From Rhodocollybia butyracea (Eukaryota > Basidiomycota > Agaricomycetes > Agaricales > Omphalotaceae), in assembly GCA_015501585.1 (NCBI GenBank), contig JADNRY010000012.1:1-64000 (forward strand): DNA of 64,000 nt, written 5' to 3'. The notes beneath the pieces were generated by a model. That model ran no database searches, was not told the DNA's origin, and was given only the letters and a program-made list of their open reading frames with translations. The translations under genes were made by a program, and so were the position numbers. Below, piece after piece: positions 17,432-54,444 of this stretch; position 1 is the first letter of the stretch; each line of letters opens with the position of its first letter.

Positions 17432-18715
17432 GTGGGACTCATGTATGATGATACAGATGTTCTTGGTGGAGACTCTTTCGCGCTCAATTCAGTACCGGAT
17501 GCGCAACACTATGTGTACCCTTCTACACGATCCGGATTGGATACAGCAAAGACTAAGAGACACGACCCAATGTCTCAAGTTAACCGCCCGGAGAAGCCGG
17601 CGAGGCAAAACCTTCCGTCGCAATCCACTTTACCACCCGCGCTACGACAACCAGAGCCACCTGTACAGCAAGTCCGATTTGCACCAGAGGCAACACCCAT
17701 GGTACAACCGCCAAGGAACAACATTCCACCGCCGACAAATCCCATTAATCAACAACAAGGCTGGAAGGATTCGAGACCCGGAAATCCGAGGGGAGGTATT
17801 ACAAAGGATGTAGAGATGAAAGATGGCGAGAAAAGATCTACGAACAATCCACAGTATCATTTTACTTCCAAAGTTCAGGATTTAGCTGACACACAGTCTA
17901 TGTTCTCAAAAATAGGTGAACTAACCGTTGAAGTACCCCTCTTCGAACTTCTGGGTGCTAGTCCTCAGCTTTCTAAGCTCATGACGGAATACACCCGGAC
18001 CAAACGCGAATACGGTGCTCCGAAAGACACGAGAACTACCTCTACAGGATACGGCGATATTATGGAACCAATCACGTCTATTGAAGGTACTCTTGGAGCA
18101 GAGTCTGTGGAGAAACACGCGTATGTTGAGTCTGACGAAACGGGAATTAAAGACTTTGTCTTCAGGTGTTCTAACGCCGCTGCTCAAATCCCCGCATCCC
18201 GTTTCTTTGCAATGACCGTAGGCGACATTCGAATTACTCTCAACGGCAATGAATACTTGGCTATGATTGACTCTGGATCTGAACTCAATGTTGCAGGGTC
18301 TCACTTGCCAGAATCTGCTTCACTACCTATGGACTTCGACGGGATGCGCTGGTCCCTCAGAGGCATCAACGGCGACTATGAACGCTTGCGCGGATGCGCT
18401 ATCGATGCCCCTATTAAAATAGGAGGCCATGATTTTGCTCATCATATTTTCATCTCTAACCAACCCATAGGCAAACACGATCTTATTCTAGGACAACCAT
18501 TCCTTCAAGAATTTTCCGCTCGGATCGATTATGAACGAGGCAACCACTGCAAACTTTACTTATGGCAAGACGGCAACAAGAGAATGCGCCCGACCCTTAT
18601 GGTTTCTATTACGGACCCGGGAAATCCACGCAACACGACTGCTATCCGGATGGGAGAACCTCCGAGAGGAGTATCCTTCATCGAAGAAGTTGAAGACTTG
18701 GATTTTCGGGATTAG
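17432..18715 (+). pseudogene. Element A Gag C-terminus and aspartic protease
   Basis: The frame carries a proline-rich linker and then a retropepsin: AMIDSGSELNV (catalytic D-S-G), the flap region, and KHDLILGQPFLQEFSARID, the usual I-L-G-x-P-F. The protease would cut the element's polyprotein. The frame closes at 18715 and RT restarts 12 nt later. Confidence 0.75.
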
Positions 18716-24469: not shown

Positions 24470-24679
24470 TGACTTCACCGAGTCCAGAGACAGTGAATAA
24501 TCGCACGTCTGATAATAAGGACGCCACGTCACAGAACAATTCCCACACGGTCAAACCGTCAGAGGAAAAAAACAAGTGAGCCTGAAAAGCTCCTCATACA
24601 ATTAACAGAGAAATACCTCAGCAAGGAAAAAAATCCTACGAAGACAACTGAAAACAACAGTCGATCAGAAGGCAGTCAA

Positions 24680-26319
24680 ATGGCTGCCATAAAAGAACCA
24701 AGAGACGATGTCTCTATAAATGAGAAAGCAGCTAAAGCGCTGGATTCAATAACAGACCTTGCACAGGTCTTAGTAAATGCTACAGGGCATATGCTGAAAA
24801 TCGCGGAAACGAATCAGCAATCCCTGAGCGAATTCACATCGGCAATGCATCAATTGAATGCACAATTAAACAAAAAAGACGAAGAGAAGTCTTCGTCCAA
24901 GTCATCGACAAAGTCGACAGACAGTAGTGATCATACTGGGATTGCCATGCCAGTACCTAGACTGCCGGACGAACGCCTGCCAGTAGTGCCGGACATCTAT
25001 AGGAATACACTGTTCTCGAATGCCTCGACAGGAAAATGGAAAGATTCCATGCTCAATGTATCGCAGGCAATAGGTCCATCATCCATAACACATAGAAACT
25101 ATGTGGGATTTGGACAAGTAGGAGAATTACCTCCTACAATAGGCAAATCGCTAATAACACAGCGAGGCTATACAGACTCACGTCAAAGACGTCCGTCATC
25201 GCTACCAGATACGCCGACACCTACGTTCCTTGCAGGAACAGGATATACGCCTAAAGTGAGACAAAGTCCCACTGGGAGAACTTCTCCAGCACCAAGAGGA
25301 CCGAGGTCACTCCCGATACCGCCCAAATCCAGGGCTACAACACCGAAGTTGAATGACTTCATATTTGAAGAGCCAGAAATCATATCTGACTCTGCGGCGC
25401 AACTTACGGATCACATTCGTAATGCATTCGGAGTGTTGGCGACACCGTCAACGCCCATAAATATATTGTCCACATTTGTGGACGACAAAGCTACCATTAA
25501 AATGGAAGCATTCAGCGTGGTGATCCCACCAGCAAAACAGACAATTACAGAAAGCCCGGAAGATCCGGGTAACAAAAGCGATACAATCGTAGAACTACTA
25601 GAGCGGTTTGGATTAAACCAAACGCCAACGCAAGTTCCTAAAAGGAACAAAACAAAGGATCTCCCGAAAAGAGAATCCATACTGAATAACCACAATGTAG
25701 TTATTAAGGCAGAAGAGTCAATCTCTGCCATAAAAAATAACAATGTTAAGACGAATACACCCGTAATGACAGCATTCCCAGTCGTAACAACTGGTGAAAA
25801 AGCACCAACTAAAGTTGACGCTGACCCGGACACAGGCATAGCCTACGAATGGGATAGTCGCGTAGCGATGCAACGCTTGCGCAATAAGAGCTTCCGAGAA
25901 ACTGGAAAAGCCTCGGAATTCTACCCAGACCAAATGGTTGGGTTCAACACGGATGTCAACCGGTCGATAAATTCAACACACCCGAAAAGGTGTGGATACA
26001 CGAACAAGACAGTGCGCAAGATGCAGGTCCTTCTAAAAGTGGGGGAGGACCACCTCGAAAAACACCTACAAGAGGAGCTCCAGGAGCACCCGACGACGGT
26101 GATGACAGCTCAGACTCCAGCGGAGATGAGCACAAACGCAACAACGATAAAAATTGTCGAAGCACACCATGGGATGATGATTCATCCCAAAACAATACAG
26201 ATTCAGATGTCACAGATTTGTCAAACGAATCGTGGATTGGAGATATTCTCCAACCTAATGAGAAATTCAGTAATAGCAAGAAGAAGAAGATGCGACAAAA
26301 AGTAGCATCACAACTTTGA
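24680..26319 (+). CDS. Element B Gag N-terminal region, frame broken
   Basis: The ATG at 24680 begins MAAIKEPRDDVSINEKAAKAL and continues as a helical, serine/proline-rich region. Near 25985 the frame must change by one base (aaaagg run) to continue as SKSGGGPPRKTPTRGAPGA, DDSSDSSGDEHKRNN and SNSKKKKMRQKVASQL, the acidic then basic lead-in typical of agaric gypsy Gag. A TGA at 26317-26319 then interrupts the same frame that continues into capsid. The TGA may be a C-to-T change from CGA or a readthrough stop. Many arms of inverted repeats lie in this region (for example 25089-25105, 25468-25483 and 25555-25569). Confidence 0.6.
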
Positions 26320-27439
26320 GCGAAAACTGCAGACGATGATTGTCGCAAACTGTGGCAACACCAAGTACACAAAGTGTACAGAAAGCAGATACATGAACAT
26401 GTAGGCACTGCACTTCCTCCATTGGAGGGAGTAAAGAATATCAAAGTACCATCACCGGAGAGCTACGAAGGTACTCCCGATGTAGAGGTATTTGAAAGGT
26501 GGCTATTGTCACTCCTTCGATGGTTCGTAGCACACCGCTATTGCGGTCCAGCGTATGATAGCGCAAGATTACAAATCTTAGGCATGTTTCTAAAAGAAAA
26601 AGCACTAGATGGGTACAACGACGAAGTCGTTGGTGCACACAGGACCACAATTAAGTGGACCAGTGAAGAAGCCATTATTGGCTTATTTGATAGATGCGTT
26701 CAAGCATCTACAATTCATCAAGCTACTCAGCAGTTTGAGTCAATCACTTACTCACCTGTTAAGGGAGTACAAGATTATCACTCAACACTAGTACAATGGG
26801 CATCAAGAATGCAACATCCACCGCATTCATATGATATGAAAATGTGTTTCGTTAAAGGATTGCCTATGTCAATCCTTGAAATACTTATAGACAGGGGAAT
26901 AATCCCTGAATACGCAAAATTCAAGACTATCATCAAAGCGGTTACTTGCATTGAAGATAATCGCGCACTACACAATTACTACGTGTCAGGCAAGCGAAAA
27001 ACAAGCACACCGAGCTCGAAATATGTCACAAAACGCGCTATTGCGGAACAAGGAGCAAGTACTCCTCCCGCTAGAACGTATACTGCAGCAGCAGTACCAA
27101 AAACCCAACAAAGGGTACAGTTAGTAAAAATATACTAGCAAAGGGAAGAGACCAGTTAAATTTGGTAACTCTTTCCGTGGAACAGGACAAGTGTCAAAGA
27201 CACCGTCTAAAGAAGAAGCAGTTTCTAGGAAACTATGCTTCCGTTGCGGCAAGCCAGGTCATTTCGCGAATGACTCGACGTGCGAAAGGCATGGACAACC
27301 TCGATTGTACGCCATTCAGGAAGACGAGCTGGAATCAGCTAGTCAAGATGTCAATCCACAAGAAAACCTCAAAGAGGATCTTGAATATCCTCCAGCACTT
27401 CAACCCAACGAGGATGAAGATGAGGACGAGTTGTTATGA
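26320..27439 (+). CDS. Element B Gag capsid and zinc knuckle
   Basis: In frame with the preceding segment, the sequence reads YRKQIHEHVGTALPPLEGV and then the Gag capsid core ESYEGTPDVEVFERWLLSLL...DSARLQILGMFLKEKALDGY...LVQWASRMQHPP. It ends at 27138. A second frame (27191-27439, probably the same polyprotein after one frame change near 27125) carries a CCHC zinc knuckle, CFRCGKPGHFANDSTC, and an acidic tail. The knuckle would bind element RNA in the virus-like particle. The hairpin TAGATGC/GCATCTA at 26691-26710 is one of many inside the coding sequence. Confidence 0.65.
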
Positions 27440-27624
27440 CTCGATCAATAGTCTCGTCCAAACCTTCACAGTACGTAACTCGGCAGTAAAAATGATAAGA
27501 GAAATTAATGAGATTATAGAGCAAGCCTTTCCGTTCGTTGAAACCGCTAGGCAAAAAATATATACTCAAACAACTAGGCTCAAGTAAAGTTAGTAACTAG
27601 TTTGTAATACGAAACTCACAGAAG

Positions 27625-27982
27625 TTATTATTTGGAGATAGCTCGACAAATAATAATAAGATTACCCTCGGAGATGGCTCGACAAGCAGTAATATGAATC
27701 AGAACTAATACTTGGAGATGGCTCGACAAGTAGTAGTGAGTATGGTGTCTAATACTCGGAGATAGCTCAACAAGTAATAGTGAGTGTGATGTCTAATACT
27801 CGGAGATAGCTCAACAAGTAATAGGAAGTTGCAACTTGGAGATAGCTCAACAAGTGGCAATTAAAGAAGTATTCACTAGGAGATAGCTCAACAGGTGAAT
27901 ATTAGTGGATACAACTTGGAGTTAGCTCAACAAGATGTATAAATGTGTATTGTAGCTTGGAGATAGCTCAACAAGATACAAT
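27625..27982 (+). repeat. Array of nine hairpins with a common 12-nt loop and variable stems
   Basis: Nine copies of the loop GAG(A/T)T(A/G)GCTC(A/G)A occur about 34-62 nt apart. The loop starts are 27635, 27671, 27715, 27759, 27803, 27839, 27880, 27919 and 27960. Each is flanked by 10-12-nt arms that differ between copies but pair with each other. Copy 1 is perfect (TTATTATTTG / CAAATAATAA). Copies 8 and 9 pair at 9 of 10 and 10 of 11 (ATACAACTTG / CAAGATGTAT; ATTGTAGCTTG / CAAGATACAAT). GAG and CTC inside the loop can also pair. The array lies in the non-coding region between gag and protease of element B. Confidence 0.92.
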
Positions 27983-28125
27983 GAGTTGGTCTGGTGATTC
28001 ACACAAGTGATAACAGCAAACAAGTGGGGGTTTGGATTTAAGAAAAATAATATGTCTAACGTACATTGGTAAATCTAGACTACTTATATACTGTGCAATG
28101 TGTACTAGTTAGGAAATGCTGCGGA

Positions 28126-28440
28126 ATGACTAGATTTGAGTCATAACTGCGGAAATACTGCGGATGAGTCAGTCTGACTATGTAATGCTGTGCAATGACT
28201 AATATTGAGTCATGTATGTGGAACCGTAGTTGACTCAGATATCTGGCTGTGAAATGACTGATATTGAGTCATTGATGTAAAGAGGCTATACAATGATGTC
28301 ATAGCTGTGGAGCAGTAATGTGATATCATAACTGCGGAGCAATGGAATGACATCATGATTGTGGAGTAGCAAGATGACATCATAGTTGTGGAGCTAGAAT
28401 GATGTCATGACTGTGCAGACTGTGCAGTGACTGTTAAAGA
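28126..28440 (+). repeat. Second hairpin/short-repeat array in element B
   Basis: Three hairpins share the stem ATGACT / AGTCAT with 7-nt loops (28126-28144, 28195-28213, 28253-28273). They are followed by at least five 24-31-bp units centred on ATGA(TG/CA)TCAT or TGATATCA and separated by (A/G)(C/T)TG(C/T)GGAG. No open frame crosses the region 27600-28688. Confidence 0.75.
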
Positions 28441-28688
28441 TCATTCTGGTGTTCTGGAAGAATGTGTGCAGCATTAACCCAAATGGTGTTGAATAACTAA
28501 TGAATGTAAAATGTTAAGTAGAAGTATTAATGATAGTGTTCATAGTTGGTTACAGAAGAAAAAAGATTGGGTGTATAGGATTTAGATCCAGGTCATAACA
28601 CGAGTCTGAAGGAGAATACTTCCTTGAGACGTATGAAGAAGAATATGTCGGTTGACTATATGACGACAACGACGACTTCCAAGAGTAC

Positions 28689-29408
28689 TTGGGTCATATT
28701 CATGACCCTTACATTGAAATCAATCCTCTAGAGGACTGTGGACCGGCAGTATGCCTAGAGGATGACTGGGACAATGACACGTTCTTGTCCCTGGATCCTC
28801 AAAGCCACCAGATACAACTGGATGGCACTGATCGTATGGCGGCTATGAACACGCCCAACGAAGAGCCTAAAACCAATACGGGTGAAGGCATTCGTAAGTC
28901 TAGTAGACTTATGACCAGACCTGACCAAGGTCCAATCCAAAATCGCCGTCTTATGATGGCAATCATTGAAATTGCAGGAGTAGAAGTGTTCACGCTATTC
29001 GACTCTGGTTGCACAATCGAGGCTTTAAGCCCCGCATTTGTTCGATTAGCGAACATCAAAGTACACCAATTGGCGGACCAACATTCGCTACAATTGGGAA
29101 CTGTAGGAAGTAAAGCCAAATTTAATTTTGGCGCAAATGTACATACCTCCTATGGAGGTATAGATGATAAAGTATACTACGACATTATTAATGTTGATAG
29201 ATACGACGCTATCCTCGGTACGCAATTTATGCGTAAGCACGGCATCAAACTCAATTTCGAGAGAGATGCCATATGCATTAAAGGGAAGGTAGCACCTTCT
29301 CTTTCTGTGGGGGAGGACACGGTAGAGTTTTCTCGACGCACAGCAATGAAACGTAGAGTTCTCAATGAGAAATTCAGAAGAAACGAGACTCAAGCTAGCA
29401 AAGAATGA
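28689..29408 (+). CDS. Element B aspartic protease
   Basis: The frame gives an acidic lead (EDDWDNDTFLSLD), then a retropepsin with VEVFTLFDSGCTIEALSPAFV (catalytic D-S-G) and YDAILGTQFMRKHGIKLNFE (I-L-G motif). It would process the element polyprotein. It ends in TGA followed by CTAG (29406-29408), the sequence context known for stop-codon readthrough, and that TGA sits in a hairpin (AGCTAG ... CTAGCT). The same frame continues through two more TGA codons (29436, 29904) to pol. Confidence 0.78.
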   Translation: MGHIHDPYIEINPLEDCGPAVCLEDDWDNDTFLSLDPQSHQIQLDGTDRMAAMNTPNEEPKTNTGEGIRKSSRLMTRPDQGPIQNRRLMMAIIEIAGVEVFTLFDSGCTIEALSPAFVRLANIKVHQLADQHSLQLGTVGSKAKFNFGANVHTSYGGIDDKVYYDIINVDRYDAILGTQFMRKHGIKLNFERDAICIKGKVAPSLSVGEDTVEFSRRTAMKRRVLNEKFRRNETQASKE

Positions 29409-29459
29409 CTAGCTGCAGCTACAACTTCTAAGAAGTGAGAGCGTAAATCGAAATCCACA

Positions 29460-29906
29460 GTGGAAATCAAGACGATAGTAGATGAAGAACATCTTCGGTC
29501 TGAAATGCAACGCTCCGTGAGGAGCTTCCCTCATAACTTCCCAGTTGTACTGGAAAGCTACGACGAGGATGATAATTCAACCTCGCCCAAAATAAAGGAG
29601 TTATCTGCAGAAGATTTCGATAAATACGTTGAAATCATACAAGAATTCTCTAGAGAATACTTTCCTCGCAAAATAGAGGAACAAGCGGAGCTAAGAGCTC
29701 AGCACGATATGGAAGAGAATATATCTCAACCAATGCCGGTTGAACAAACAGGCAACGAAACAAACAATAATCCTAATCAGGATAATCACGATACAGGGAT
29801 TAGCTATGAATACATAGCTATCCCAAATACTAACTCGAGACAAACAAGATCTAAAGATCAAGTTCAAATGAGTACTAATCGAAAAGGATTGAGAAGTAAA
29901 TCTTGA
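29460..29906 (+). CDS. Element B protease-RT linker
   Basis: This polar, acidic segment lies in the same frame as protease and pol (EEHLRSEMQRSVRSFPHNFP, then KELSAEDFDKYVEIIQEFSREYF) and is followed by an asparagine-rich stretch. It has no catalytic motif and is probably the spacer between protease and RT in the Pol polyprotein. It is closed by TGA at 29904-29906. Whether the flanking stops are real or mutations of CGA is unknown. Confidence 0.5.
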   Translation: MEIKTIVDEEHLRSEMQRSVRSFPHNFPVVLESYDEDDNSTSPKIKELSAEDFDKYVEIIQEFSREYFPRKIEEQAELRAQHDMEENISQPMPVEQTGNETNNNPNQDNHDTGISYEYIAIPNTNSRQTRSKDQVQMSTNRKGLRSKS

Positions 29907-32900
29907 TCCATCTCTCATCAAAGACAAAGGAGACCCGTTCGAGTCAAGGTGTGGAAATTCCCACTTGACGACATAGAGTTTGAAGAACTCTACACTCATG
30001 GTCATGCAGACGATGAGCATGAAAAATTATACGCCATCCAAGAGGAAGACATTATGGACTTCTCGGCTCTACCAGAGCGAGGTCCGTATACGGATGAGCA
30101 AATACCATTGCTCCGTGCTCGTATTATACACGAGCATATGGACATCCTAGGAGGAGTACCACCGGTACTCCCACCATTTCAAGAAATTAATCATTGGATT
30201 AATCTCATTGACAAACAGCATAAGTATAACTACTATATGCCAAGATGCCCAGATCATCTTAAGACTCAGCTTAGTGATAAGCTTGAGAAATACACCGGTG
30301 CTAACTGGTGGATTCAACAAGCTGTTCCACAAGCAGCTCTGATGCTTTGCATTCCAAAGAAAAATGGTACTCTTCGTACCATTATCGACTATTGTCAGCG
30401 TAATGCTAACACGGTAAAGGATGTAACTCCTTTCCCAGACCAAGACAACATCTGTACGGATGTTGCCAAACACAAGTATCGATCTAAAATTGACCTCAGC
30501 GATGCATACGAACAGACTCGAACTGAGCCTGGAGATGTATGGAAGACTGCATTTGCATGCGTCTTTGGGACATTTGTTAGCAATGTCATGATGATGGGAG
30601 ACTGTAATGCTCCCGCCACTTTTCAACGATTGATGACCTACATCTTTCGTGATGCTATTGGACGATATGTCCATGCTTATTTAGACAATATATTCGTCTT
30701 TAGTAATACACTCAAAGAGCATGAAAAGCACGTCAGAGACGTACTAGAACGACTCAGGAAACATCACTTGTTTCTAAGGGCAGCAAAGTGTGAACTTTAC
30801 TCTGAGTCTGTAGACTGCCTTGGGCATGTCATCGACAATAAAGGTATCCATGCAGATACCGATAAGATGTCAAGAATTCGCGAATGGCAAACCCCGCGCA
30901 TGTACAATGATGTACAGCGTTTTCTGGGACTTGTACAGTACATTGCACCATACATGCCCGAAGTAGCCCAGTTCACTGGGCCACTTTCAATTATGGTACG
31001 GAACAATGTTCCGTTTGTATGGATGCCAACACACAAAGTATGTTTTCAAAACATTAAACATTTAGCATCAAAGGCTTCAATACTGAAGCCAATTGATCCA
31101 AGTAAAGATGAACCTATATGGGTTATCTGTGACGCCTCCGTATCAGGAGTCGGAAGTATGTACGGCCAAGGCCCTACTTGGCAGACGTGTAGACCTGCGG
31201 GATTTATGTCGCGCAAATTCACAGCTGCACAACATAATTATAGAGTCTTTGAATTGGAGACTCTTGCAATCCTCGAAGCTCTTCTCAAATGGGAAGATAA
31301 AGTTCTTGGATATCGTATACATGTGGTCACAGACCACAAAGCATTAGAATTCTTCCTTACACAAAGGAAGCTTTCAAGTCGTCAAGCACGCTGGATGGAA
31401 TATCTATCCAGATTTGACTTTGATATTTGTTATATCAAAGGTATAACGAACAAAGTAGCGGATGCGTTATCGCGTTACTATGAATCCGACATGCCTAATG
31501 AACATCATGAGGCACATGAATATGTCAATGCAGATATTCACATTGACCGAAATCTAGACGACCTTCCACAAGGAAGAATCGAAGAATTAGTTAGCGAGCA
31601 TCTCGCTAGCATGAACACTCGTCGATCTGCTCGACTTCTTCAAAAGAAGAAGCAAGTAAATCCTGTAGCCGAGACTATAGAAGCTCGAGACAATGAAGCA
31701 GCAGTATTACAATCTGCCGTTAAAGAAAAGGAACCAACAGTTCCTGTTCCCGATATTACGGAAGAAGATATTACTATCTTCAACTCTCGCGCAAGAGGTG
31801 AAGAACCGCTTGCTAGTCATGCCGAAAAGGATGATTTTATAAAGAACATTAAGCGTTGCTACGCTAATGATCCATTATTCTCAAAAGTGCTCAATAATAC
31901 TGAGCACCATAAGCCATTCTCAGTCGAGAATGGCCTCATATACACTGTAAACCGAGGCAAAGAAAAAGTTCTTTGCATTCCTAACGGTAAAACTGTTAAA
32001 GGACAGAGCTTGAGAGGCATAATCGCCGAACAAGCCCATGAAGTATTAGGACACTTCGGAGGTCAACGAACCTCCGATTACATCCGCCGATGGTACTGGT
32101 GGCCAAGGGTCAACGGTAACATCGAGGAATTTTGTAAGGCATGCGTTGAATGTCAACGCGCCAAAACTACTAATAGGATGCCAACTGGCCTCCTACATAC
32201 ACTACCGATACCCATGAAACCATGGGAATCAATCGGAATGGACTTCATTGGTCCATTCCCTGAATCACAAGGATACGACTACCTCTGGGTAGTCATCTGT
32301 CGATTAACTTCACGGGTACATGTAATACCCGTAAAAACAACAATAACTGCAACGCAGTTATCATGGATCTACGTCAAAGAGATCGTAAGACTTCACGGAT
32401 TACCGAAGTCTATAGTCTCTGATAGAGACCCGAAGTTTACTTCACGCTGGTGGCGTGAAGTTCATCATTTACTAGGAGCTAAGCTCCTAATGTCTACTTC
32501 GTTCCATCCACAAACGGATGGAATTACTGAGCGAGTGAATAGGTCCATTGGACAAATTCTTCGCACTATGGTCAATGCCGACCAGAAGAATTGGGTGGAC
32601 AAATGTCCACTAATGGAGTTCGCGTTGAACTCCAGTATCAACGAAAGCACAGGGTATGCACCCTTTGAACTCGATGGAGGGTACATGCCTTCCATGATTC
32701 GCGAAGTACCCAGCGGTACTCAAACACCACCAGGTGTTCATGAATTTGCAGATCGTGCATTACAGCACCTGCAAGATGCTCACGACGCGATTATAGAATC
32801 GCGTGTATATCAAGTCTATCACGCTAATCAGCGTAGACGACAAGAGCCGGAGATTCAACTAAATGATTTAGTGTATCTTTCGACTAAAAATTTGAACTTG

Positions 32901-33239
32901 CCGAGGGGGAGGGCATCTAAGCTACTTCCCAAGTTCATTGGACCATACCCCATTGTTGAGGTACATGAAGACTCCTCGAATTATCGAGTAGGTCTGCCAA
33001 CGGAGTTGGCTAAGCGTGGAATTCATAATAACTTCCACGCAAGTCTATTGCGAAAGCACCATCCGAATGATGATGCACTATTCCCTATGCGTTCCGTTGC
33101 GGAACCATACGATTTCGGAGAACCGTCCACTGTGGAATGGCTCGTTGACGAGATAATCGACCATCATTGGGATGGTCGAAAAACTCATGTTCCAAGTCAA
33201 ATGGAACTTAGGCGATATTACCACCGAAACTTACAATAA
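29907..33239 (+). CDS. Element B Pol: RT, RNase H, integrase, partial chromodomain
   Basis: The open frame reads through RT (KKNGTLRTIIDYCQRNANTV; KIDLSDAYEQTRTEP with the first catalytic Asp; AYLDNIFVFSN, where the Y-x-D-D box reads Y-L-D-N), then RNase H (VICDASVSGVGSMYGQ, AAQHNYRVFELETLAI, VTDHKALEFFL, ADALSRY). It continues through the integrase HHCC domain (AHEVLGHFGGQRTSDYIRRW, CVECQRAKT) and the D,D35E core (GMDFIGPFP, SDRDPKF, FHPQTDGITERVNR), and ends with a GPY-type segment and the start of a chromodomain (EWLVDEIIDHHWDGRKTHVP) that is cut short. There is no ATG close to the start, so it is made as part of a polyprotein. Synonymous codons build hairpins throughout (listed in the findings). 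Confidence 0.85.
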   Translation, partial: SISHQRQRRPVRVKVWKFPLDDIEFEELYTHGHADDEHEKLYAIQEEDIMDFSALPERGPYTDEQIPLLRARIIHEHMDILGGVPPVLPPFQEINHWINLIDKQHKYNYYMPRCPDHLKTQLSDKLEKYTGANWWIQQAVPQAALMLCIPKKNGTLRTIIDYCQRNANTVKDVTPFPDQDNICTDVAKHKYRSKIDLSDAYEQTRTEPGDVWKTAFACVFGTFVSNVMMMGDCNAPATFQRLMTYIFRDAIGRYVHAYLDNIFVFSNTLKEHEKHVRDVLERLRKHHLFLRAAKCELYSESVDCLGHVIDNKGIHADTDKMSRIREWQTPRMYNDVQRFLGLVQYIAPYMPEVAQFTGPLSIMVRNNVPFVWMPTHKVCFQNIKHLASKASILKPIDPSKDEPIWVICDASVSGVGSMYGQGPTWQTCRPAGFMSRKFTAAQHNYRVFELETLAILEALLKWEDKVLGYRIHVVTDHKALEFFLTQRKLSSRQARWMEYLSRFDFDICYIKGITNKVADALSRYYESDMPNEHHEAHEYVNADIHIDRNLDDLPQGRIEELVSEHLASMNTRRSARLLQKKKQVNPVAETIEARDNEAAVLQSAVKEKEPTVPVPDITEEDITIFNSRARGEEPLASHAEKDDFIKNIKRCYANDPLFSKVLNNTEHHKPFSVENGLIYTVNRGKEKVLCIPNGKTVKGQSLRGIIAEQAHEVLGHFGGQRTSDYIRRWYWWPRVNGNIEEFCKACVECQRAKTTNRMPTGLLHTLPIPMKPWESIGMDFIGPFPESQGYDYLWVVICRLTSRVHVIPVKTTITATQLSWIYVKEIVRLHGLPKSIVSDRDPKFTSRWWREVHHLLGAKLLMSTSFHPQTDGITERVNRSIGQILRTMVNADQKNWVDKCPLMEFALNSSINESTGYAPFELDGGYMPSMIREVPSGTQTPPGVHEFADRALQHLQDAHDAIIESRVYQVYHANQRRRQEPEIQLNDLVYLSTKNLNLPRGRASKLLPKFIGPYPIVEVHEDSSNYRVGLPTELAKRGIHNNFHASLLRKHHPNDDALFPMRSVAEPYDFGEPSTVEWLVDEIIDHHWDGRKTHVPSQMELRRYYHRNLQ

Positions 33240-33521
33240 TTGTAAGGATTTAACAGCTCTAGACAGATATCTAGAACTACAAGCAGTAGATGACTGGCGT
33301 CATCTACCGCGAACACAAACTTAACAGCGCCTAATTGCATAGTTACTATGCAAACTAGCGCCTAAATTCCAAGGAAGTATTACTTCCAAATCGGATACAT
33401 TGATCTAAAGATCAATGTATGAGTGGCTGTGTCATAATATGACTGTAACCGATCGCTTCGCCTCGAGGCCGGTTAATAAAAGTAGGAATGTTTTCCAACT
33501 TTTCCTTAATTCTCGACCACC
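33240..33521 (+). other. Non-coding spacer with strong inverted repeats
   Basis: Between pol and the accessory gene lie perfect inverted repeats of 9 bp (33286-33294 with 33299-33307), 8 bp (33335-33342 with 33346-33353) and 11 bp with a 4-nt loop (33395-33405 with 33410-33420). The spacer contains no open frame. Confidence 0.85.
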
Positions 33522-35777
33522 ATGTCTTCTGGCAACGCCAAAGACAAAATGCCTGTAAAACGAGCTATAATCAGTCAGGACGTGTCGCGAAGCGACGAAA
33601 ACAACGACGATGGGTCAAACGACGCCATCATGCACCACCGGAACCACGCCACTCCGCATTCCCTGCCCAGCTGCAAACGCAGCAAGGGCCCGCATTCAAC
33701 GCGACGGGTAATACCGTGCATCATGGTGTGCCTATGGCACAACCTACACTTACAACTGGCTACGCCAGTCAAATATCACAAGTAGGCTGGACATTCCATC
33801 CAAACCTACATTGCGTAATACATGGAGCGGACGGGGTTAGCCCCGCATGCCCTGTATGTAGGGCTTTCATAGACCACGGCTTACAAGCCGTTGGTAACGC
33901 CGACCGAAGTTGGACGGGGCTAGCGAAGATCTGGCGGTTATCACGCGCACAGTATCAACCCACCTGCTGCTCTGCAGCAAGAAGACGCTGAATCAGCGGT
34001 CAACCTAGCTTTGAAACTAGGCGCCGCAAAACGAGACGTCGATAAACTCGACCGTCGCTTGCGTGATACGCAGCGTGACTACAACGATCTGTTACAAGAT
34101 CATCGTGCTCTACAAGTAGAGTACGATAGAATAAGAGATGAGGTCGATGACCTCCGACGAGAAGAAGAGAGTTCTCGACGCGGTCGAGGCTCTCCTCATT
34201 ACAGAGACGCAAGCCAGTCCGGCAAGCGTCGTCGTGTCGAACGATCGCCCTCAGAAGAGAGCGAATACCCAGCAGATGAACCCGCTGGCAATGATTCTGG
34301 ACCTATGGACCAGGATCCCATGACTGCACCAGTTGCAGTTGATACATCCGCCGTCCTGGCACCTGAGGTGCCTGGACCCGTTGCAGAACTACCAGTTCTC
34401 CCTCATAGGAGGGAGGACGGTGGTTACTTCGCGTCTGACCGTTGGGTTAGATATGGCATTGATGCCAACAACGCCGAGGCAAATGACAATCGTCGTTTAC
34501 CCATCCCTATATCAGTGTCCAATGCGCGATCTGTCCAAATGGACAAGTCAACAAAAGCACTTAATCCAACTAATCAGTTGGAGGTAATCTGGTACCTAAG
34601 GTACCTTCGTGATCCTGCCCTAGCCCAGAGATGCGGCGTACCCCGCGGTAGGCTATGGAGGATTCATCATCTCCTCGCAAGTATAATGCGAGAAGTGAAC
34701 AAGATCGATCCATTGGAGCGATCAGAATGGCAACGTTGTCTTGCCACAAATTGGTTCATCGCCGATTTCGTGCGTGAAGCAGCCACGGAACGCGAAGCTC
34801 GAGAAGCACTCGAGCGAGACAATGCTCGTATCGATGACGATACGGCCAATCCAAGCGTGAAACCACGCAAGACTAAAAACAAAGGCAAGGGCAAAGCCCC
34901 AGCCCCGATGCAGATAGTGGTAGAAGGGTCTTATGACACTACTGCCAATATCAATGCGCCTAGTGTGCGCAATCCAACGCGGCTGTCCTCACCTGAGGAA
35001 TGGGCTGCTTACCTCGCTAGCCCCTCTGGGGCTAAAACTCCTTTAGCCGGCGTATACCGGCGCCGTTCTGATAGAGCTATCAGTATGCGTACTCTTCGAG
35101 GACGCATATTGGTAACCTCCCGCAGGCCAACCTTGCCTGCTAATACGCCACCTCATGTTGCTGCGCGATATTATTTGTTGGCGGCTGAAGTTATACTTCG
35201 GCCAAACTATTATAACAATTTGGTCACTAGTGGCCAAATTACTATTGCTACTGGGACACCTGTCCCTCCAATCGCGTTTGACGACTCGTTCAACGCCACC
35301 ATGCTGTCTGTGGCAAGGTTCTTCGCTGAACAAGGACTGACGGTCGCAGACATCGAGGACGCAGCATTTTACGCTGCTAACTGGGTATATTCATACGCAC
35401 CGAGTAACTCGGACGTAATATTCGCCGCTAACGCGTTACGCGCTAGCTTCACTTCAAATGTACGCCTACCATTAGGGTACAACGAAGACTACTGGGTTCC
35501 TGGGGTAGGAATTGTTCCTGGCCCCACACAAGTTATAAATGCACACATTCATAACAACGCTGTTTCAAATACAGCATCTTCAAGCAACACTGGGGCAGTC
35601 GCTACCCCAACTACATCCGCAACGACAACGTCGTTTGCACATAACGCCACCCCCGTCGTGGCAAACAATTCAGCCAGCATTGCATCCTCTGCTGCAGTGC
35701 CCGCTACATCCACCGCTCCTTCCAACGAAGCAGCACCTATGTCCGCTGAAGCCGTTCAGCAGATGGATGAGACATGA
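33522..35777 (+). CDS. Element B accessory protein: CxxC motif, coiled coil, helical domain
   Basis: The ATG at 33522 (context ccaccATG) opens MSSGNAKDKMPVKRAIISQD. Two frame changes (near 33660 and 33950) are needed to read on through WTFHPNLHCVIHGADGV, PACPVCRAFIDHGLQ (Cys/His pairs that could bind zinc), and then a coiled coil (AAKRDVDKLDRRLRDTQRDY, VEYDRIRDEVDDLRREEES). A basic patch (GKRRRVERS), a helical domain (NQLEVIWYLRYLRDPALAQR, LERDNARI), a KTKNKGKGK patch, a second helical domain and a Ser/Thr/Ala-rich tail follow. The last 588 codons are uninterrupted. I do not recognise the family. Its position after integrase suggests an accessory role in the element's life cycle. Confidence 0.6.
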
Positions 35778-35880
35778 GCCTTGAAGGATATGCCAACCTT
35801 CGAGGCGCCCCGCGTTACGCCAACGCTGGAGTCTCCTATCCATCTAGATCATCGCCTCGCTTCTGCGAAGCTTGTCTTGC

Positions 35881-35888
35881 GGGGAGGG
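35881..35888 (+). other. Polypurine tract of element B
   Basis: GGGGAGGG directly abuts the 3' LTR, the expected position for priming of plus-strand DNA. Confidence 0.7.
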
Positions 35889-36088
35889 TGTAACGGCTAC
35901 GCCGTTACTGGTCTTAAGGCGCTGCGTCGCCATCTAATTTCTTTATATTCAAATATATTCAATTTTCTATATACTGCATACCGTATGACTTACATAAGTA
36001 AGTCTTCTTTTATACTGGTACACTACATGCTATAAAGCTTGTCGTGTTCACTCGTGTGATTTAAGCAACGCCTCGTAGAGGCCTTACA
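35889..36088 (+). repeat. Element B 3' LTR, 200 bp
   Basis: It starts TGTAACGG and ends CCTTACA, with inverted termini TGTAA/TTACA. It contains the hairpins GTAACGG...CCGTTAC (35890-35908), GACTTAC/GTAAGTC and GCCTC/GAGGC. Its first 90 or so bases match 15046-15132. Confidence 0.85.
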
Positions 36089-36882
36089 CTTCAGAAATTT
36101 GGCTGGATGGTCATCTCACTGATATTGCATACCAGACTAGAGGGGATAGTCAGTGGGTAAACTCAGTGAAGGCATTGCGCATAGGTAGCAAGCCAACAAA
36201 TGTATTATATAGTCAGTGCACTTAGGAAGTATGAAACCTCCACATACAGATATGTACAGTATTAGTAAGTTGGTGAAGTCAGTACACTAAGTCCGTGAAT
36301 GAGGTCCGTGGTCAGTACACCCGATTAGGGAATGTAAGATAGGAGTTGCCGGATGCCGGTATAAGTGATGACTATAATGATATTACTAAGTGATCCTGTG
36401 ACTTTTGGGAGGGGGAGGGGGATCCCCCGGCCGCAGTCATACGGTTGTTCTCCCACAGGAGAGCCTGGTAGCCCATCAAATGTGCTGAGCGCTTGAATGC
36501 TTATCTTGTTTATGAATGTGACCATTGTCATTGCCACTGACCACTGTCATTATGACAGTGGTCTTCATGAACCTCTTTGCTTCTCCGGAGCCATCTTATT
36601 TTGGGACTGGCCAATCGTGCCATTCAATGCTATTCTCTACCATGTAAACTGCAGGATTGAGTACCTGACTTTTCAACTTTAACATGCACAACCTGACCGC
36701 ATGGTCCTTGAAAGCTGAAGGTGCGATAGCATGTGGTCTAATCCACGGGAGCCTGAGTAATATTGTTTATCTATTTCTAGTCGCACGCAGGATTGAGTAT
36801 GAGAATCAGCTAGAATCAGCTCTCATGCCCGACATTAAATACGCACACTAGATGAGTCGAATGCTCAAGGTGTTCCAGTACC
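36089..36882. other. Intergenic region upstream of the protease gene
   Basis: No open frame or repeat family is supported. It contains a G-rich stretch (about 36407-36421) and TG/CA-rich short repeats. Confidence 0.4.
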
Positions 36883-40928: not shown

Positions 40929-43900
40929 CTATCGCCCCCATCCCCCGCCACCGCCATCTCTCGCCCTGATTCTCTGCCCACTATTCCAATGCTGCTCCCT
41001 ATCCCTGTCTCGATCCTTCACAAAGTCGTGCCCTCCACGATCTCGGAATCGGTCTCTATCCCGAGCATCATATGGAGTACTGCGAGGGATATACCCAGTA
41101 CCTGTACGAGAGAGTCCGACCTGATATCCGCCTCCCCCACCACTACCACCACTACCACCAGTCGTATGGTGCTGTTGATGTGGATTTTGGTGGTGCTGAT
41201 GCTGATGCTGCTGTTGTGCCTGCTGCTGCTGCAACTGCCGAAGCGCACGTGGCCCTGAAGGAGGTGTACGGCCTAATGCGGGATTAGCAGGAGTTGGTGT
41301 CAGAGTCGGAATTGATGAAGCGGATGCCGTTGTGGGTGGTTGTGGAGGGATGGCTGAGGGTGGTGAGGTGCTGACGCCACCACTGAGACTGAGATTACGC
41401 ATGGGAGGACTGCCATGAGAAGTAGTCACGGAGGGCGACCGAGCAGCGAAAGAGCGTGGCTGTGTCGGTGGTGTTCGGGATCGTGATTCGTTGGGTAACG
41501 TCGGGTCCAAGAACTTGAACGGCCGAGGAGGAAAAGACGGCGATGGGGATGTGGCAGACGAAGTTGCGAGTTTTGTATTTGAAGTTAAACCCACGTATTG
41601 ATGAGCATTGTTGTTATCTTCGATTTCGCCATCCTCTTGAGTAGGTCTACGGGAATACTTGTAGAGGTCAGACGATAACCCGTTGGGTGGTGAGCCAGCA
41701 GAACCAGAAAAGTCAAGGGGATATTGAGGAAAAGTTTGACTGCTAGCTGAGTTGGATGTAGCGAAGGAGGACGCAGGATTCAGGTTGAAATTGGGGATGT
41801 TTGGTGACGCGGTCAGGACAGCTGGTACAGGCTTTGAAACAAAGCCGTTAACCAGGGTTGCAAACCCACCATTGTCAGTGGCAAGAACAGCGGTGGCAGC
41901 GGAAAGCTCATTCCCATTCCCATTCACCATCGCCAACCTCTGCGTCATCAATTTGTTCAGCGTCTCTGAAGCCTTCATGATCACATCCACATCAGACTGG
42001 GAAGGCTTTCGCTCTCGCTCCTGTCCTTCAACTTTCCATTCAGTGGGACCGGCATTGGGGAAGAATGGGACTTGGGGAGAAACAGTAGGCCAAATGGAAT
42101 GAGGAGGGTCATCGTCGATTGTCTTGCTGCTCTCCATGGCCATAGTAACATCCTCTGCACTGTGTGCATCTTCTCCGTTCTCGACACTTGGTACTGCAAT
42201 CGGAATCGGAACAATTACGTGTTCCTTTTCCTGTTCCTCCCCGACATCCTTCTCCAGTTTCTTATCTCCAACATTCTCTACAACATTATCTCCCACCTTC
42301 CCCCTCTCTTCTTTCTCCCTCTCCTCCTTCTCCCGTTGCTCCTCCTCCTTCTGACGCCTCTTACGCATCGCGAAATCTTTGAGTGACATCTTGACTTTTG
42401 ATGGTGCTGGTGTTGGTGTCGACGGAGTCAGATTTGGAGCGAGAGAAATTGTGGGAGTTTGGGGTGTCAGACTTTCGAGTAGTGACGGAATTTCGGTCGG
42501 AGCGGAACCTGTAGAATGATCTGTTAGAGTATTTCGAAACGGAACGAGTATACATACCGTCATCTTCACCATAAACACGATCAGAAGGCGGTGGTACATC
42601 TGCATTTGGATTGGCGTCGCCGTTTTCTTGAAAAATAGACCATTTAGTGAAATCGAATAAAAAATAGAAACGAAGAAAAAACACACCTAACACAACAGGC
42701 TCCCTGTCCCTCTCCTTATGCTCCTTCTCCCGCCCTCTCTCGTCTTCTACATCTTCTCTTGGCGTCGCAGGCGAAATATTCCCCAAAGCCGTCGCCGGCG
42801 ACTGCGGCGACATTGACGTCGAGTGTTCGAGGTCCGGGATGTCGCGAGTAGGAGTAGGAGTCCGAGTAGGGCGAGTAACACCTAGAGTTGGATGTGGATA
42901 TGGTACATGCTTAGACGTAAGCGTAGGGGTAAGAGAAGTAGAAGAAGAAACAGGGGTAGAGGAGATAGAATCGGGTTGAGGATGAGGATAAGGATGCGCA
43001 ATGATCTCATCTGGATCTGCATTCATCATACCTACATCCTCATCCCTCTTACTATCACCTGTGGAATCACAACTCGAACGATGCTCATGATCAGGAGGAG
43101 CCGAATGTGCGGGTAACGAAATCAATCCCTCAACTGGTGAAGAGAGCGGGGAGGATAAAGGAGATGACGATGAAGTTGAATTTGAATACTCCTTGCGTGC
43201 CCGCGCTGCCATCGAGGATACTGTCAACGATTCGTGTCTTGTCAAGGTCGCGGTCATCGAGAAAGAAGGCGTAGTGGAAGGAGCAGCTTGTGACGACTCG
43301 GAAGCCGTTACAGAAGGTACAACTCGCGGTGACGACAAAGCATACCCAGATCGATACTCAGGATTAGAACTCTGCTGCGTCGACTTCGGCGAAGCAACCC
43401 ACGGTGGAATGCCATTGTCGTCGAGGTTCTGGGGTTGAGCTCGGGTTGGAGGCGTTGATGGAGACAGGGATACCGGAGCGATACACTCGGGATGTGGAGT
43501 AGTTGTTTCTGCTCCTCTTTCCCCTCTCGCTCCTTCCTTTTCTTCAACCTGCATCCCCACAACCATACCATCATCAATTTGCATGGCATCATCATCAATA
43601 CGAGAACCATCCACCTCATCCATCATCTCCTGCTTGACGCGTAGACTCTTTGTGACCCTCTTTGTGACCCTCTTCTTACCACCATCGAGAGACCTCTGCC
43701 TGCTCTGCTTGGGAGTACTTTTCTGAAGCGGAGTACGCCCCATACTTGGATATCCTCTATATCCGTTATCGTGATCCTCATCGTCCAGCTCATCGACCTC
43801 AACTTCGGCCTCTTCCTCACCGTTCCCGTTCCCGTTCCCAGCATCCCCGTTCGCATACAGTGGTAAAGACGGTGACGCAGACGAAATTGAACCCCTCTCC

Positions 43901-46900
43901 TCCCTCGTCGCCGCCGGCCTCCTCAGCGGCACCCAATTATGTTCTGGAGAACTAAGTACGCGGATGCCTCCAGGACCGAGGACTGCGTCGTGGGTTGAAG
44001 ATGTGTCGTGGGGTGGAGATGCGTCGTGTGCTAGGGATATATGGTGGGGTAACGATGCATCATAAGGAAGCGATATCTTTATCTCATCGCTCCCATCGGA
44101 GGATGGCTGAGCCAAGTAGGGTGGAAGTGGTAATGGTAATGGTTGTGATACATGGCGATCCCGGTGCGAGTTTGTAGTAGTCGGATCGTATCCGTATCCC
44201 GAAGGCCCATATCTAGGAGATATTGATCTTCCATCATCCCTTCTGGACATCAACAAAGAACCATCTTTTCCATGTAAAGAACCAGGCAGCGGAGGTAACG
44301 GAGAGATAGGCCTCGCAGCAGCAGCAGCAGCAGCCAACGCTGCGAGTGGGTCTAGTGTGACTGCTCGTGCGCGAGAAGCTAGAGTTGTTCGGGATGTGGA
44401 TGCAGTACTAGCTGAAGTCTGTAGCGGTGGAGCTGTTGGCACATTATTCGCATTTCGAGATTTGGACGTTTTTGACCTAGAGGAAGGCTTTGTCTCCGTC
44501 GTCAGAGTTGGGATAGTTCTAGACATGTATGGCGATTGTGACCGAGAATCACGGAGAGAAAGTGAAAGTCCAGAAGGTGATCTCGCCATATCCCTGTCCC
44601 CACTCCCCCTACTCACAGAGCGACCCGTAGGAGGAATCGTAATGGCAGGCGACATCAACGATAAATTAGCCAATGAGAGAAGAGGCGAATCTGCAACCAT
44701 AGACATGGACATGGACATTTGCATTTGTTCAGGTGTCATTTGTGTTGATATTGATATTTGGGGTGGTGGGTGCATGGTTTTGGTCTGTGTGTCGTTTAAT
44801 GTGGAAGCAGAAGCGGGGGTTCGTGTTCGTGCTGGTACTGGTACTGGTGCTGGTGCTGGTGCTGGTGCTGGTGCTGGTGCGAGTACCAGTGCTGGGGTCA
44901 TATCATTCCGTGTGGGCACAGGTGCAGGACTAGTCGACTTCGTAGACATCGAAATGCTTGGTTTCCGTTTTGAGGCAGGCATCAAGTCAACATCCATAGG
45001 AATAGGCTCCGCTCTCTCCCCCGGTATCAGACTCCTAGACTCCATCAACTCCACCTCCGGTTCCTTCCTCCATCTGCGCTTCATCTTTGGTGGAATAATC
45101 TCTGATTCCTCTGTTTCTGCCTCTGCGTGATGCTGAGGGTTCACAGTTACAGTTGCACGGGACCACGTGGGTTTCCGACGATGTCTCTGGAGCTGCGGCT
45201 GAGAGTGCGTGTATCGAGAATGGATACCTAGAGTTAGACCTAAGTAAATCGTTGATATAGGTGTCTTGTATCTAGAATAAAAACACGCACCATGATCTTC
45301 ATCAAAACTCTCCTCAACACCCTCTCGAGGTTCCCATTCCTCAACACTTTCTCCTCCCTCTTCATCGTGATCAACCGCGCGCGCCTTTCCTTTTCCTTTC
45401 CCATCAGGAGGTAGGGGCGGTTCGCCCCAAAATAACTCCTTCTTTCCGGTGCTAGTCTTCCCTATACTCATACCTATACCGATACCTGTACTACTTGTCC
45501 TTACTCTGGAAGTACTATCATGTGGGAATGGATACGACTGTCCATACGAATACGGCGACGGTGCATGAGGATGGGGATAATGAGGATAAAGGGAGGGAGA
45601 TGGAGCGTGGAGAGGAGCGTAAGGTGAAGGCGCATAAGGAGACGGAGGCTGTCCGTATCCTGCATACGAATATGGCAAGGCATCATAAGGAGATATGAAT
45701 CGCGGAGCAGGGTATCGATTTGGATTTGGGATATGATTGGAATGGTGCGATTGGAATGAATACTGAGGATGGGGAGGATAAGGGTTCTGCTGTGGTTGTT
45801 TTTGCCTTTCTGGCCGCGTAGCAACAGGTGCAGGAAGTGGAATTGGGGCAGGAGGTCCGTGCCCCACTGTATCTACGCCAACATCCGCCTTTTCCCTCTC
45901 TCTCTCTCTTTGCTCACGCCCTTTGGGTGTCCCGTCTAACGATGGAAAGCCCTCTTCCTTGGGACCCAAACCGGGCTTTTCCTTGGTATACCCCAAATCC
46001 ATCTCGACTCCACCCAATCCACCACTACCAGGTATCCGCTCGCGAGTGCGGAATCCACGGGGAACGCCGATAAGAGGGCCAAGATCGAGGTCTGTTTCGA
46101 GTTGAGTTTCGGGAGCGGGAGCGGGAGGGCGAATAGTGTCGGGGTCGGGTTCATTAAGAGAGGGAAGGAAGGATCGGGTCCGGTTGGGATCGGTAGAGAA
46201 GCGGAGTCATTCAAGATAGGTATCGGTGAAGGTAGTGGAGACATCTCGCCACTGATATCAGGTCTCCGTCCCCGCTCATTGCTTTGCTCAAACCCCGAAT
46301 GACCAGTAGTGAACCCAAATCCAAATCCGCTCTTCAAGAACTGCCTATTCCATTCCTCCTTCGGTTCCTCACCTTCCACAAACTCTCTCATTCTCTTCAA
46401 CACGCATCCCTGTGCACTCTCTCCACACGCACACGTTGTGAACGTTGCGCCCAATGCACGGAGAATGTTTGCCATTTGGAGTTTGTAGGCAGATATCTGG
46501 GCGGGTCTACGAAAGGAGGGTTATTAGAGCCAAAGAATGCAACGAATGTACTCACGGAAACACGCTTTCATCTCTCAAGAGTGCAGGCAGCAAATGAACA
46601 ACATTTGCATCGTCCCATTCCCATCCCAAAACGACTTCTTCGTTTGCTTTGAGGTCGCGAAGTGCAAAAAGAGCGAAAGAAAGAGAAGAGTCGGAATCAG
46701 GTTCAGACTGCTTGTTATCGCAGATCACAGGTCTCAACACTGCATTTGGTCTACATCCACTTCTGACAAAAGTTCCCATTCCACTTCCCATTTTCCCCTC
46801 ACTTTCCTCGCTTTCTTCATCCTCAAGCATCGGACCTCCTACGCCTCTGGCATCCAATGCCAGATCCAAAGGTGGACCCATCAGATGGACTCTCGGTTTT

Positions 46901-53398: not shown

Positions 53399-53579
53399 CG
53401 TAGAGTGAAAGTATGTTGAATTAGGCGCTTAAGACGACGCTCACGTGGCATAATAAGCGCGTCCAGGACCGAATCAGACCGAAATCTACACTATCAGCCT
53501 AGATCGCTGGTACATTCCGTCTCCAACCTGCTTTTATGCGATACTGCCGCGCGAGTAAATTTACGTGCCATTATCCCAT

Positions 53580-54160: not shown

Positions 54161-54444
54161 TTGTACTTACGGATGAGTCCGTAATACATGGCCATTAGGC
54201 CGTTGCCACTTGCGATGTGACTATCGCGTCAAGTATACTTTTGATGAAAAATATGTCTGCTTTGTACCGTACCTTGTAATACCAGTCTGATGACATGTCG
54301 TAGACAAAGGAGTACACAGCAACCAGATACTCATGAATGGGACTCTCGATCGACGTCTTTGACTCTTCGTCTTTCAGTCTTTCCTTCCAGCGCCTCTAAG
54401 TATTAAACAACTTTCATCTGGATGCTTCCGCGCTCCGATCAAAC

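What the first reader, a model, noticed from the sequence alone, without database searches (positions are those of the whole stretch)
24470..36088. A retrotransposon whose coding sequence is saturated with perfect short hairpins
Element B carries inverted repeats at extraordinary density from end to end. In 32201-32800 alone I find 15 with stems of at least 6 bp and loops of 3-11 nt, 10 of them with stems of at least 7. Examples: 32235-32243/32251-32259 (9 bp), 32343-32350/32354-32361 (8), 32439-32447/32453-32461 (9), 32502-32509/32516-32523 (8), 32614-32621/32627-32634 (8), 32785-32792/32797-32804 (8). Elsewhere: 30153-30160/30164-30171, 30363-30370/30376-30383, 33157-33165/33171-33179 (9), 33395-33405/33410-33420 (11), 34140-34145/34149-34154. 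With equal base frequencies and the same loop range, about 0.3 stems of 7 bp or more and 1.3 of 6 bp or more would be expected in 600 nt. Arms lie across conserved motifs (GMDFIGPFP, HPQTDG, NGTLRTI), so synonymous codons carry them. In element A (18001-18600) I saw none of 7 bp or more. This looks like element-wide ordered RNA or DNA structure, selected or generated mechanistically. I know of no described LTR element with this property.
Basis: partly seen in the sequence, partly recalled or inferred. Interest (0 to 1): 0.92.

Follow-up and report, generated by a model that had tools for sequence, protein, structure and literature searches.

The report
Hairpin-packed fungal retrotransposon family
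A family of jumping genes in a mushroom-type fungus has its coding sequence packed with perfect little hairpins that fold on both strands, resembling the genomes of single-stranded RNA phages, which suggests that natural selection has kept the element's nucleic acid folded.

Summary
All 11 cited hairpins are exact. Stems of at least 6 bp with 3-8 nt loops number 122 in 24470-36088 against 13.7 in dinucleotide shuffles; in pol, 52 against 6.9 in synonymous-codon shuffles. Element A, other window ORFs and the flanks show no such excess. All 30 family loci examined have it; 18 other Ty3-like elements of the genome have 0-3.5 stems/kb, and two nearer relatives (about 40% pol identity) a weak excess. 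Two subfamilies, 76% identical in pol, keep the density while individual hairpins turn over with compensatory changes. Enrichment falls with loop length, G-T mismatches are not preferred to A-C, stems are GC-richer and loops GC-poorer than in chance stems, and loops tend to close with 5'C-G3'. Four ssRNA phages give a similar, weaker signature. Best reading: selected, element-wide structure in both strands. That it keeps sense and antisense apart, and so evades host RNAi, is my inference. Main rival: templated hairpin repair during replication, disfavoured but not excluded. Ten searches of an open-access library listed no LTR element described this way.

The parts
24470..36091 (+). 5'-truncated copy of a Ty3-like LTR retrotransposon (subfamily B1), hairpin-dense except for an insert and the two short end stretches; relatives with both LTRs span about 10.6-10.8 kb
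   Evidence: 97-98% match to the C334 copy, which has 200-bp direct repeats at its ends, 98% identical; density drops outside
24680..26305 (+). 541-aa ORF, probably the start of gag (by position only); 14 stems >=6 bp, 2.5 expected
   Evidence: no Pfam hit over cut-off
26374..27138 (+). 254-aa ORF, probably gag (by position only); matched in subfamily B2 at 56% aa
   Evidence: no Pfam hit over cut-off
27432..28600 (.). foreign repeat inserted in this copy, lower hairpin density (4 stems, 3.4/kb): internal control
   Evidence: 95% identical to sequence outside the element near the C617 copy; the match to the C334 copy skips it
28689..29408 (+). 239-aa ORF, weakly like a retroviral aspartyl protease
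   Evidence: PF08284 E=0.0018, below its cut-off; 69% aa in B2
29949..33239 (+). pol: RT, RNase H, integrase zinc-binding, integrase core, Tf2-1-like SH3; densest hairpin region (15.8 stems/kb)
   Evidence: Pfam; synonymous shuffles
34011..35777 (+). 588-aa ORF downstream of pol, no known domain, 41-46% aa in two blocks in subfamily B2; 19 stems >=6 bp, 2.7 expected
35881..35888 (+). purine run GGGGAGGG just before the LTR, possible polypurine tract (my reading)
   Evidence: sequence printed
35889..36091 (+). 3' LTR, begins TG; 2 stems >=6 bp
   Evidence: 100% over 203 bp to the 5' LTR of the C334 copy
32235..32259 (+). example hairpin, 9-bp stem, 7-nt loop
32439..32461 (+). example hairpin, 9-bp stem, 5-nt loop; in B2 one arm has two changes, i.e. 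a one-armed case
33157..33179 (+). example hairpin, 9-bp stem, 5-nt loop; in B2 one compensated pair and one mismatch
32614..32634 (+). example hairpin, 8-bp stem, 5-nt loop; one pair is G-C in B1 and A-T in B2

Best explanation
A clade of Ty3-like LTR retrotransposons in a fungus (most likely an agaricomycete) carries selected, element-wide ordered structure. About 30% of its bases lie in discrete hairpins (most of the excess is in stems of 4-9 bp, loops 3-7 nt), built largely through codon choice, which can form in the sense strand and in its complement alike. Shown: the hairpins, their restriction to one clade within this genome, compensatory replacement with turnover, absence of a G-U preference, and folding-stability signatures. 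Inferred: that selection rather than mutation maintains them. Further inferred (about 0.3 by itself): quick-folding, GC-poor-loop hairpins on both strands keep sense and antisense molecules from annealing, as proposed for Qbeta-replicated RNAs, and so deny the host's RNAi its double-stranded RNA.
For: Synonymous shuffles remove the hairpins. Enrichment of 6-bp seeds over the rest of the window is 8-9x at loops 3-8 and about 1x beyond 30 nt, with no comparable excess of direct or mirror repeats. 30 of 30 family loci have 9-16 stems/kb, flanks included; 18 other RT elements have 0-3.5/kb. Covariation: both-changed pairs Watson-Crick 25/37 vs 63/188 slid (p 0.0002) and 16/29 vs 24/116 in the other direction (p 0.0004); slid cells reuse the same sites, so these p are rough. 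Private CpG changes hit stems at chance (n=335: gains 31 vs 29.2, losses 62 vs 59.4), whereas non-CpG changes break fewer stems (n=216: 29 vs 47.0, p 0.003) and make more (23 vs 13.6, p 0.012). Stem GC 0.476 vs 0.419 and loop GC 0.355 vs 0.449 in chance stems. Loop-closing C-G 80, G-C 35 of 220 (p 0.0005); four ssRNA phages 27 and 8 of 76; rest of window 8 and 21 of 74. Folding z -7 to -18 on both strands; MS2 and Qbeta replicase genes -8 to -11. One-mismatch stems at 6 and 7 bp: element GT x2.7 and x7.3, AC x2.5 and x6.1; phages GT x2.6 and x4.1, AC x2.1 and x4.0; E. coli rRNA GT x2.0 and x2.0, AC x1.3 and x1.5 (first run). The genome encodes Piwi and RdRP domains.
Against: No structure probing, small-RNA or expression data. 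Strand symmetry could also come from templated repair, from transition-biased decay of perfect stems, or from selection on DNA hairpins. At 6 bp the phages lean towards GT, and the rRNA control rests on 24 vs 14 stems, so the strand argument is soft. Strand preference differs by region: folding in pol leans to the minus strand (z 1.5), in ORF1 and ORF 34011-35777 to the plus strand (z -1.8, -2.9); with codon shuffles as null AC exceeds GT (x5.0 vs x3.9). Unpaired A/U falls too, so the unpaired-GC deficit partly reflects more pairing in general. Pairs further from the loop also show smaller biases. Only two subfamilies were available, so the covariation rests on one divergence, and homologous hairpins of B1 and B2 are pooled in several counts. 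Most stems turn over: 18 of 71 and 11 of 55 stay fully paired; 19 of 90 and 20 of 75 had been dropped for gaps or poor alignment. Other retroelements of the same genome live with RNAi-type genes without this structure.
Confidence: 0.6

Rival explanations
1. Mutational origin: this clade's reverse transcriptase (or replication of its cDNA) often snaps back and copies one arm of an imperfect inverted repeat onto the other, making and repairing perfect hairpins without any selective benefit.
For: It predicts Watson-Crick-only, strand-symmetric stems and compensatory changes; template switching is reported to create and maintain hairpins (PMC8794818, abstract and start of introduction seen). Non-CpG private changes show an excess of gains. 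At 4 differences 2 of 11 stems are changed in one arm only (control 0.06). The four clusters of CpG-only changes that altered stems all made them (14 clusters: 4 gains, 0 losses).
Against: Stems that differ between subfamilies are mostly changed in both arms: with 2 differences 5 of 22 are one-armed (control 0.42, p 0.08), with 3 differences 1 of 23 (control 0.15), together p 0.03; both directions are summed, so some hairpins count twice. Clusters of non-CpG changes make stems about as often as they break them (4 and 5 of 29; mixed clusters 5 and 8 of 31; no null computed). The C-G closing bias, GC-rich stems and GC-poor loops are not expected from copying alone, though they could follow if stable hairpins are copied more often.
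Confidence: 0.2
2. Selection for structure of the sense genomic RNA only (packaging, protection from nucleases, translation control), with the minus strand folding as a by-product.
For: Strong plus-strand folding excess in all ORFs of the element tested; in ORF1 and ORF 34011-35777 the plus strand gains more than the minus strand relative to null. In 24470-27431 GT mismatches are x9.9 and AC x3.1.
Against: Overall G-U is not preferred to A-C: 19 vs 28 helices (p 0.31) in seven pieces, one of which (2 kb, 1 G-T) lies outside the element by my mistake. One-sided changes between subfamilies at the 6-bp cut give fewer GT than AC in each comparison at about 70% identity. rRNA, taken as the sense-only control, leans to GT on small counts. 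No common loop motif such as a repeated packaging signal would need was seen.
Confidence: 0.15
3. Selection acts on single-stranded cDNA or on DNA hairpins (for instance to limit strand transfer, deaminase attack or nuclease action) rather than on RNA.
For: No G-U preference, and dominance of 3-nt loops (82 of 220; phages 19 of 76, with 4 nt commonest).
Against: Nothing in the sequence calls for DNA; the four ssRNA phages, which have no DNA stage (recalled), give a similar signature.
Confidence: 0.05

Closest known systems
ssRNA phage genomes (Leviviricetes: MS2, PP7, Qbeta, AP205)
   Same: Short perfect hairpins, folding excess on both strands (MS2 and Qbeta replicase tested), GT and AC mismatches enriched to like degree, C-G closing bias, few unpaired G/C
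   Different: A retrotransposon with RT and integrase and no known RNA-to-RNA replication; hairpin density about 2-3 times higher (10-13 vs 3.6-5.9 stems/kb) and a larger excess over synonymous shuffles (pol 7.6x; phage replicase genes 5 vs 2.2, 9 vs 2.5, 9 vs 2.6, 10 vs 3.7)
[quoted passage not shown]
   Same: Excess folding energy over sequence-shuffled controls spread along the genome
   Different: Described for RNA viruses; here an integrated LTR element, dominated by perfect short hairpins. Seen: abstract of PMC3950689 and search listings
Ty3 and Ty1 genomic RNA of yeast
   Same: A-rich LTR-element genomes with some well-folded regions; the SHAPE study puts stable, structured regions at up to 30% of Ty1 and Ty3 (PMC11381356, passages)
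   Different: There a mosaic of structured and dynamic regions, and A-richness is linked to less stable structure. No dense perfect hairpins are mentioned in the passages I saw; I did not count hairpins in Ty sequences
Template-switch mutations / quasi-palindrome correction
   Same: Can create perfect hairpins and compensatory changes (PMC8794818, abstract)
   Different: One-arm multi-base footprints are not enriched overall here

Membership tests
Ty3/Gypsy LTR retrotransposon | pol order RT - RNase H - integrase | tested here: met
   Pfam domains in that order in 29949-33239
Ty3/Gypsy LTR retrotransposon | Long terminal direct repeats | tested here: met
   Relatives C334 (200 bp, 98%) and C617 (166 bp matched, 98.8%); the window copy keeps only the 3' LTR
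Ty3/Gypsy chromovirus | C-terminal chromodomain in integrase | tested here: not met
   No PF00385 hit in the window pol, only Tf2-1-like SH3; not checked in the longer frames of other copies
GORS-type structured genome | Folding energy below codon-preserving shuffles along the genome | tested here: met
   Three ORFs of B1 and pol of B2, both strands; other parts of the element not folded
GORS-type structured genome | Pairing conserved by compensatory change | tested here: met
   one divergence only
GORS-type structured genome | Structure shown by chemical probing, in an RNA virus | not testable with these tools
   No probing data; the element is not an RNA virus
ssRNA-phage-like both-strand folding | Fewer unpaired G and C than null in both strands | tested here: met
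   z -2.7 to -8.3; rule from PMC6913131 (abstract)
ssRNA-phage-like both-strand folding | Both strands exist as free RNA in the life cycle | not testable with these tools
   No transcript data; host RdRP and Piwi domains present
Template-switch-generated hairpins | Multi-base changes confined to one arm, copying the other | tested here: not met
   one-armed 8 of 78 stems with 2 or more differences (about 13 expected from the control fractions); 4 gains, 5 losses in 29 non-CpG clusters

The most novel reading that the evidence does not exclude
A eukaryotic LTR retrotransposon has independently evolved ssRNA-phage-style both-strand folding across its coding sequence as an armour against sense-antisense duplex formation and RNAi, or because it passes through a hidden RNA-to-RNA stage.
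Probability: 0.27. Interest if true: 0.92.

Novelty: new variant of a known kind. Interest (0 to 1): 0.76.

Why it matters
Genome-wide ordered structure is known in RNA viruses; a transposon that shows it, with a larger hairpin excess than MS2, would make transposable elements a test bed for what such structure is for. The host has RNAi-type genes, the two copies checked have LTRs 98-99% identical, and structure-poor Ty3 relatives in the same genome serve as controls, so the anti-dsRNA idea can be tested directly. If it is mutational instead, the clade would carry an unusually template-switch-prone replication process.

Tried and rejected
Chance or composition: rejected by codon and dinucleotide shuffles. 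General repetitiveness: mirror repeats are not enriched; direct repeats at most 1.7x, at 26-50 nt spacing, where the insert's 44-nt tandem array lies. Repeated packaging motif: no dominant loop. Host-wide trait or sequencing artefact: other elements and window ORFs lack it and separate copies share it. My early note that the host might be a rust was wrong: XRN1's best named relatives are agaricomycetes. My first reading of GT about equal to AC as evidence against RNA folding was withdrawn after the phage control. Relatives in viral contigs: two scans, none confirmed. DNA of the 52-61%-identical relatives (best 120 of 1030 listed) could not be reached. One search compared unoriented loci and is superseded. 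One search included 2 kb of flank by mistake.
Full report
What is there. The window lies in a 95.6-Mb assembly of 1381 contigs. Its XRN1-like gene is closest, among named hits, to agaricomycete proteins (Grifola frondosa 68%, Tephrocybe 67%, Rhizoctonia 61%), so the host is most likely an agaricomycete fungus. The finding covers a 5'-truncated copy of a Ty3-like LTR retrotransposon: pol at 29949-33239 has RT, RNase H, integrase and Tf2-1-like SH3 domains. A relative on contig C334 has both LTRs (200 bp, 98% identical) and fixes this copy's 3' LTR at 35889-36091; a foreign repeat sits at 27432-28600. An ORF downstream of pol has no known domain but is partly conserved in the other subfamily.

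The observation. Each of the 11 quoted hairpins is exact. Stems >=6 bp with 3-8 nt loops: 122 against 13.7 in dinucleotide shuffles; >=7: 54 against 3.4; >=8: 22 against 0.9. With amino acids and codon use fixed, pol has 52 against 6.9, and the ORFs before and after it 14 against 2.5 and 19 against 2.7. Two element A ORFs and ORF 42361-46017 are at null, as is the XRN ORF; another window ORF has 7 stems >=5 bp against 4.4 (z 1.1). By region, density is 7-16 stems/kb in the element's larger regions, 0 in two short end stretches (210 and 111 nt), 3.4 in the foreign insert and 0.8-1.7 in the flanks; 30% of the element's bases lie in hairpins of >=5 bp against 8.5% outside.

Shape. Against the rest of the window, enrichment of 6-bp seeds is 9.4x at loops 3-5, 8.4x at 6-8, 3.4x at 9-12, 2.1x at 13-20 and about 1x beyond 30; mirror repeats show none and direct repeats at most 1.7x. 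Pairing beyond the first mismatch is 0.30-0.38 for two or three positions and then mostly near 25%: these are discrete small hairpins.

Spread. 30 of 30 family loci show 9-16 stems/kb (loop 3-10); one of them is the window's own and L018 and L030 overlap. Two more, L057 and L058, have 11.0 and 9.5/kb. Eighteen other RT-bearing elements (23-36% identity to pol by tblastn; not shown to be independent families) have 0-3.5/kb. Two nearer relatives (39% by tblastn; 40-46% in pieces) show a weaker excess: stems >=5 bp 70 vs 39.9 and 44 vs 26.5, with folding z -7.2/-4.3 and -3.3/-1.7 on plus/minus. Of the 18, one (L043) has a stem excess (20 vs 10.8, z 3.0) and five (L039, L040, L045-L047) have folding z of -1.8 or lower on both strands. 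So the trait is graded and far strongest in this clade. DNA of closer relatives in other fungi (52-61% among the 120 listed, apart from two of 81 and 95%) could not be reached.

Evolution. The copies compared fall into two subfamilies, about 76% identical in pol; the others are diverged copies of these. Between L002 and L008, 71 of 90 stems could be compared (9 dropped for gaps, 10 for poor alignment): 18 remain fully paired, 23 have one mismatch, 8 two, 22 three or more; without compensation 3.6 and 13.1 would be expected in the first two classes. In the other direction, of 55 stems (20 of 75 dropped), 11 and 19 against 3.5 and 11.5. Changes in the two arms are correlated (0.48-0.57, control 0.23-0.28). 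Most hairpins are thus altered or replaced over time while overall density stays the same.

Selection or mutation. Private CpG transitions, which look like decay after insertion, strike stems at chance (335 changes). The 216 non-CpG changes break fewer stems than expected (29 vs 47.0) and make more (23 vs 13.6); changes in dense clusters or beside gaps were left out. Templated copying predicts one-armed multi-base changes; these are not enriched overall (8 of 78 stems, about 13 expected from the control), apart from a small opposite tendency at four differences (2 of 11 against 0.06), and clusters of non-CpG changes show no surplus of gains (4 gains, 5 losses of 29). Stems are GC-richer and loops GC-poorer than chance stems, and the pair closing the loop is C-G in 80 and G-C in 35 of 220. 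That orientation reads the same on both strands; chance hairpins elsewhere in the window lean the other way (8 vs 21 of 74). That C-G closing stabilises hairpins is recalled.

Which strand. Stems of 7 bp with one internal mismatch are enriched x7.3 for G-T, x6.0 for A-C and x3.3 for others, perfect ones x24.6; at 6 bp x2.7, x2.5, x1.7 and x13.5. The four ssRNA phages give x4.1, x4.0 and x2.0 at 7 bp and x2.6, x2.1 and x1.3 at 6 bp. A sense-RNA constraint should favour G-T; E. coli rRNA leans that way (x2.0 vs x1.3 at 6 bp, 24 and 14 stems). The phages share the closing bias (27 vs 8), and MS2 and Qbeta replicase genes share the deficit of unpaired G and C on both strands. For Qbeta-replicated RNAs, avoidance of dsRNA is the proposed reason, with the 'fewer unpaired GC' rule (PMC6913131, abstract).

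Mechanism. Shown: conserved, strand-symmetric pairing. Inferred: selection keeps sense and antisense molecules apart and so starves host RNAi; the genome encodes Piwi and RdRP domains. Known parallels are ordered RNA structure in RNA viruses (PMC3950689, abstract) and partial structure in Ty1/Ty3 RNA (PMC11381356, passages). Ten searches of the open-access library listed no LTR element described with this property. I judged them from titles and abstract openings of the listed papers, which for searches were only part of those found, apart from the four papers opened.

Noticed in passing
34011-35777: A 588-aa ORF downstream of pol with no known domain, 41-46% identical in two blocks in the other subfamily: an extra 3' gene of this Ty3-like clade, function unknown.
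   Followed up: partly
27432-28600 (tandem units 27631-27842): A foreign repeat with a 36-44-nt tandem array inserted in the element; a 95% identical copy lies outside the C617 element.
   Followed up: partly
L033 and L034 (contigs C821, C439): Nearest in-genome relatives seen show a weaker hairpin excess (about 1.7x at >=5 bp), hinting at gradual origin.
   Followed up: partly
family copies (20 loci): 335 of 551 scored private changes are CpG transitions, which suggests cytosine methylation of these repeats in the host.
   Followed up: no
L037 (C617:347001-354000): Another Ty3-like pol fragment (42% aa to B over 153 residues) lies upstream of the C617 copy.
   Followed up: no
53001-55000: Slightly raised hairpin counts (7 and 6 stems per kb, loop 3-12) outside the element, unexplained.
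   Followed up: no
17432-18715: Element A carries a DUF4100 domain and a weak protease-like match; normal hairpin density.
   Followed up: no
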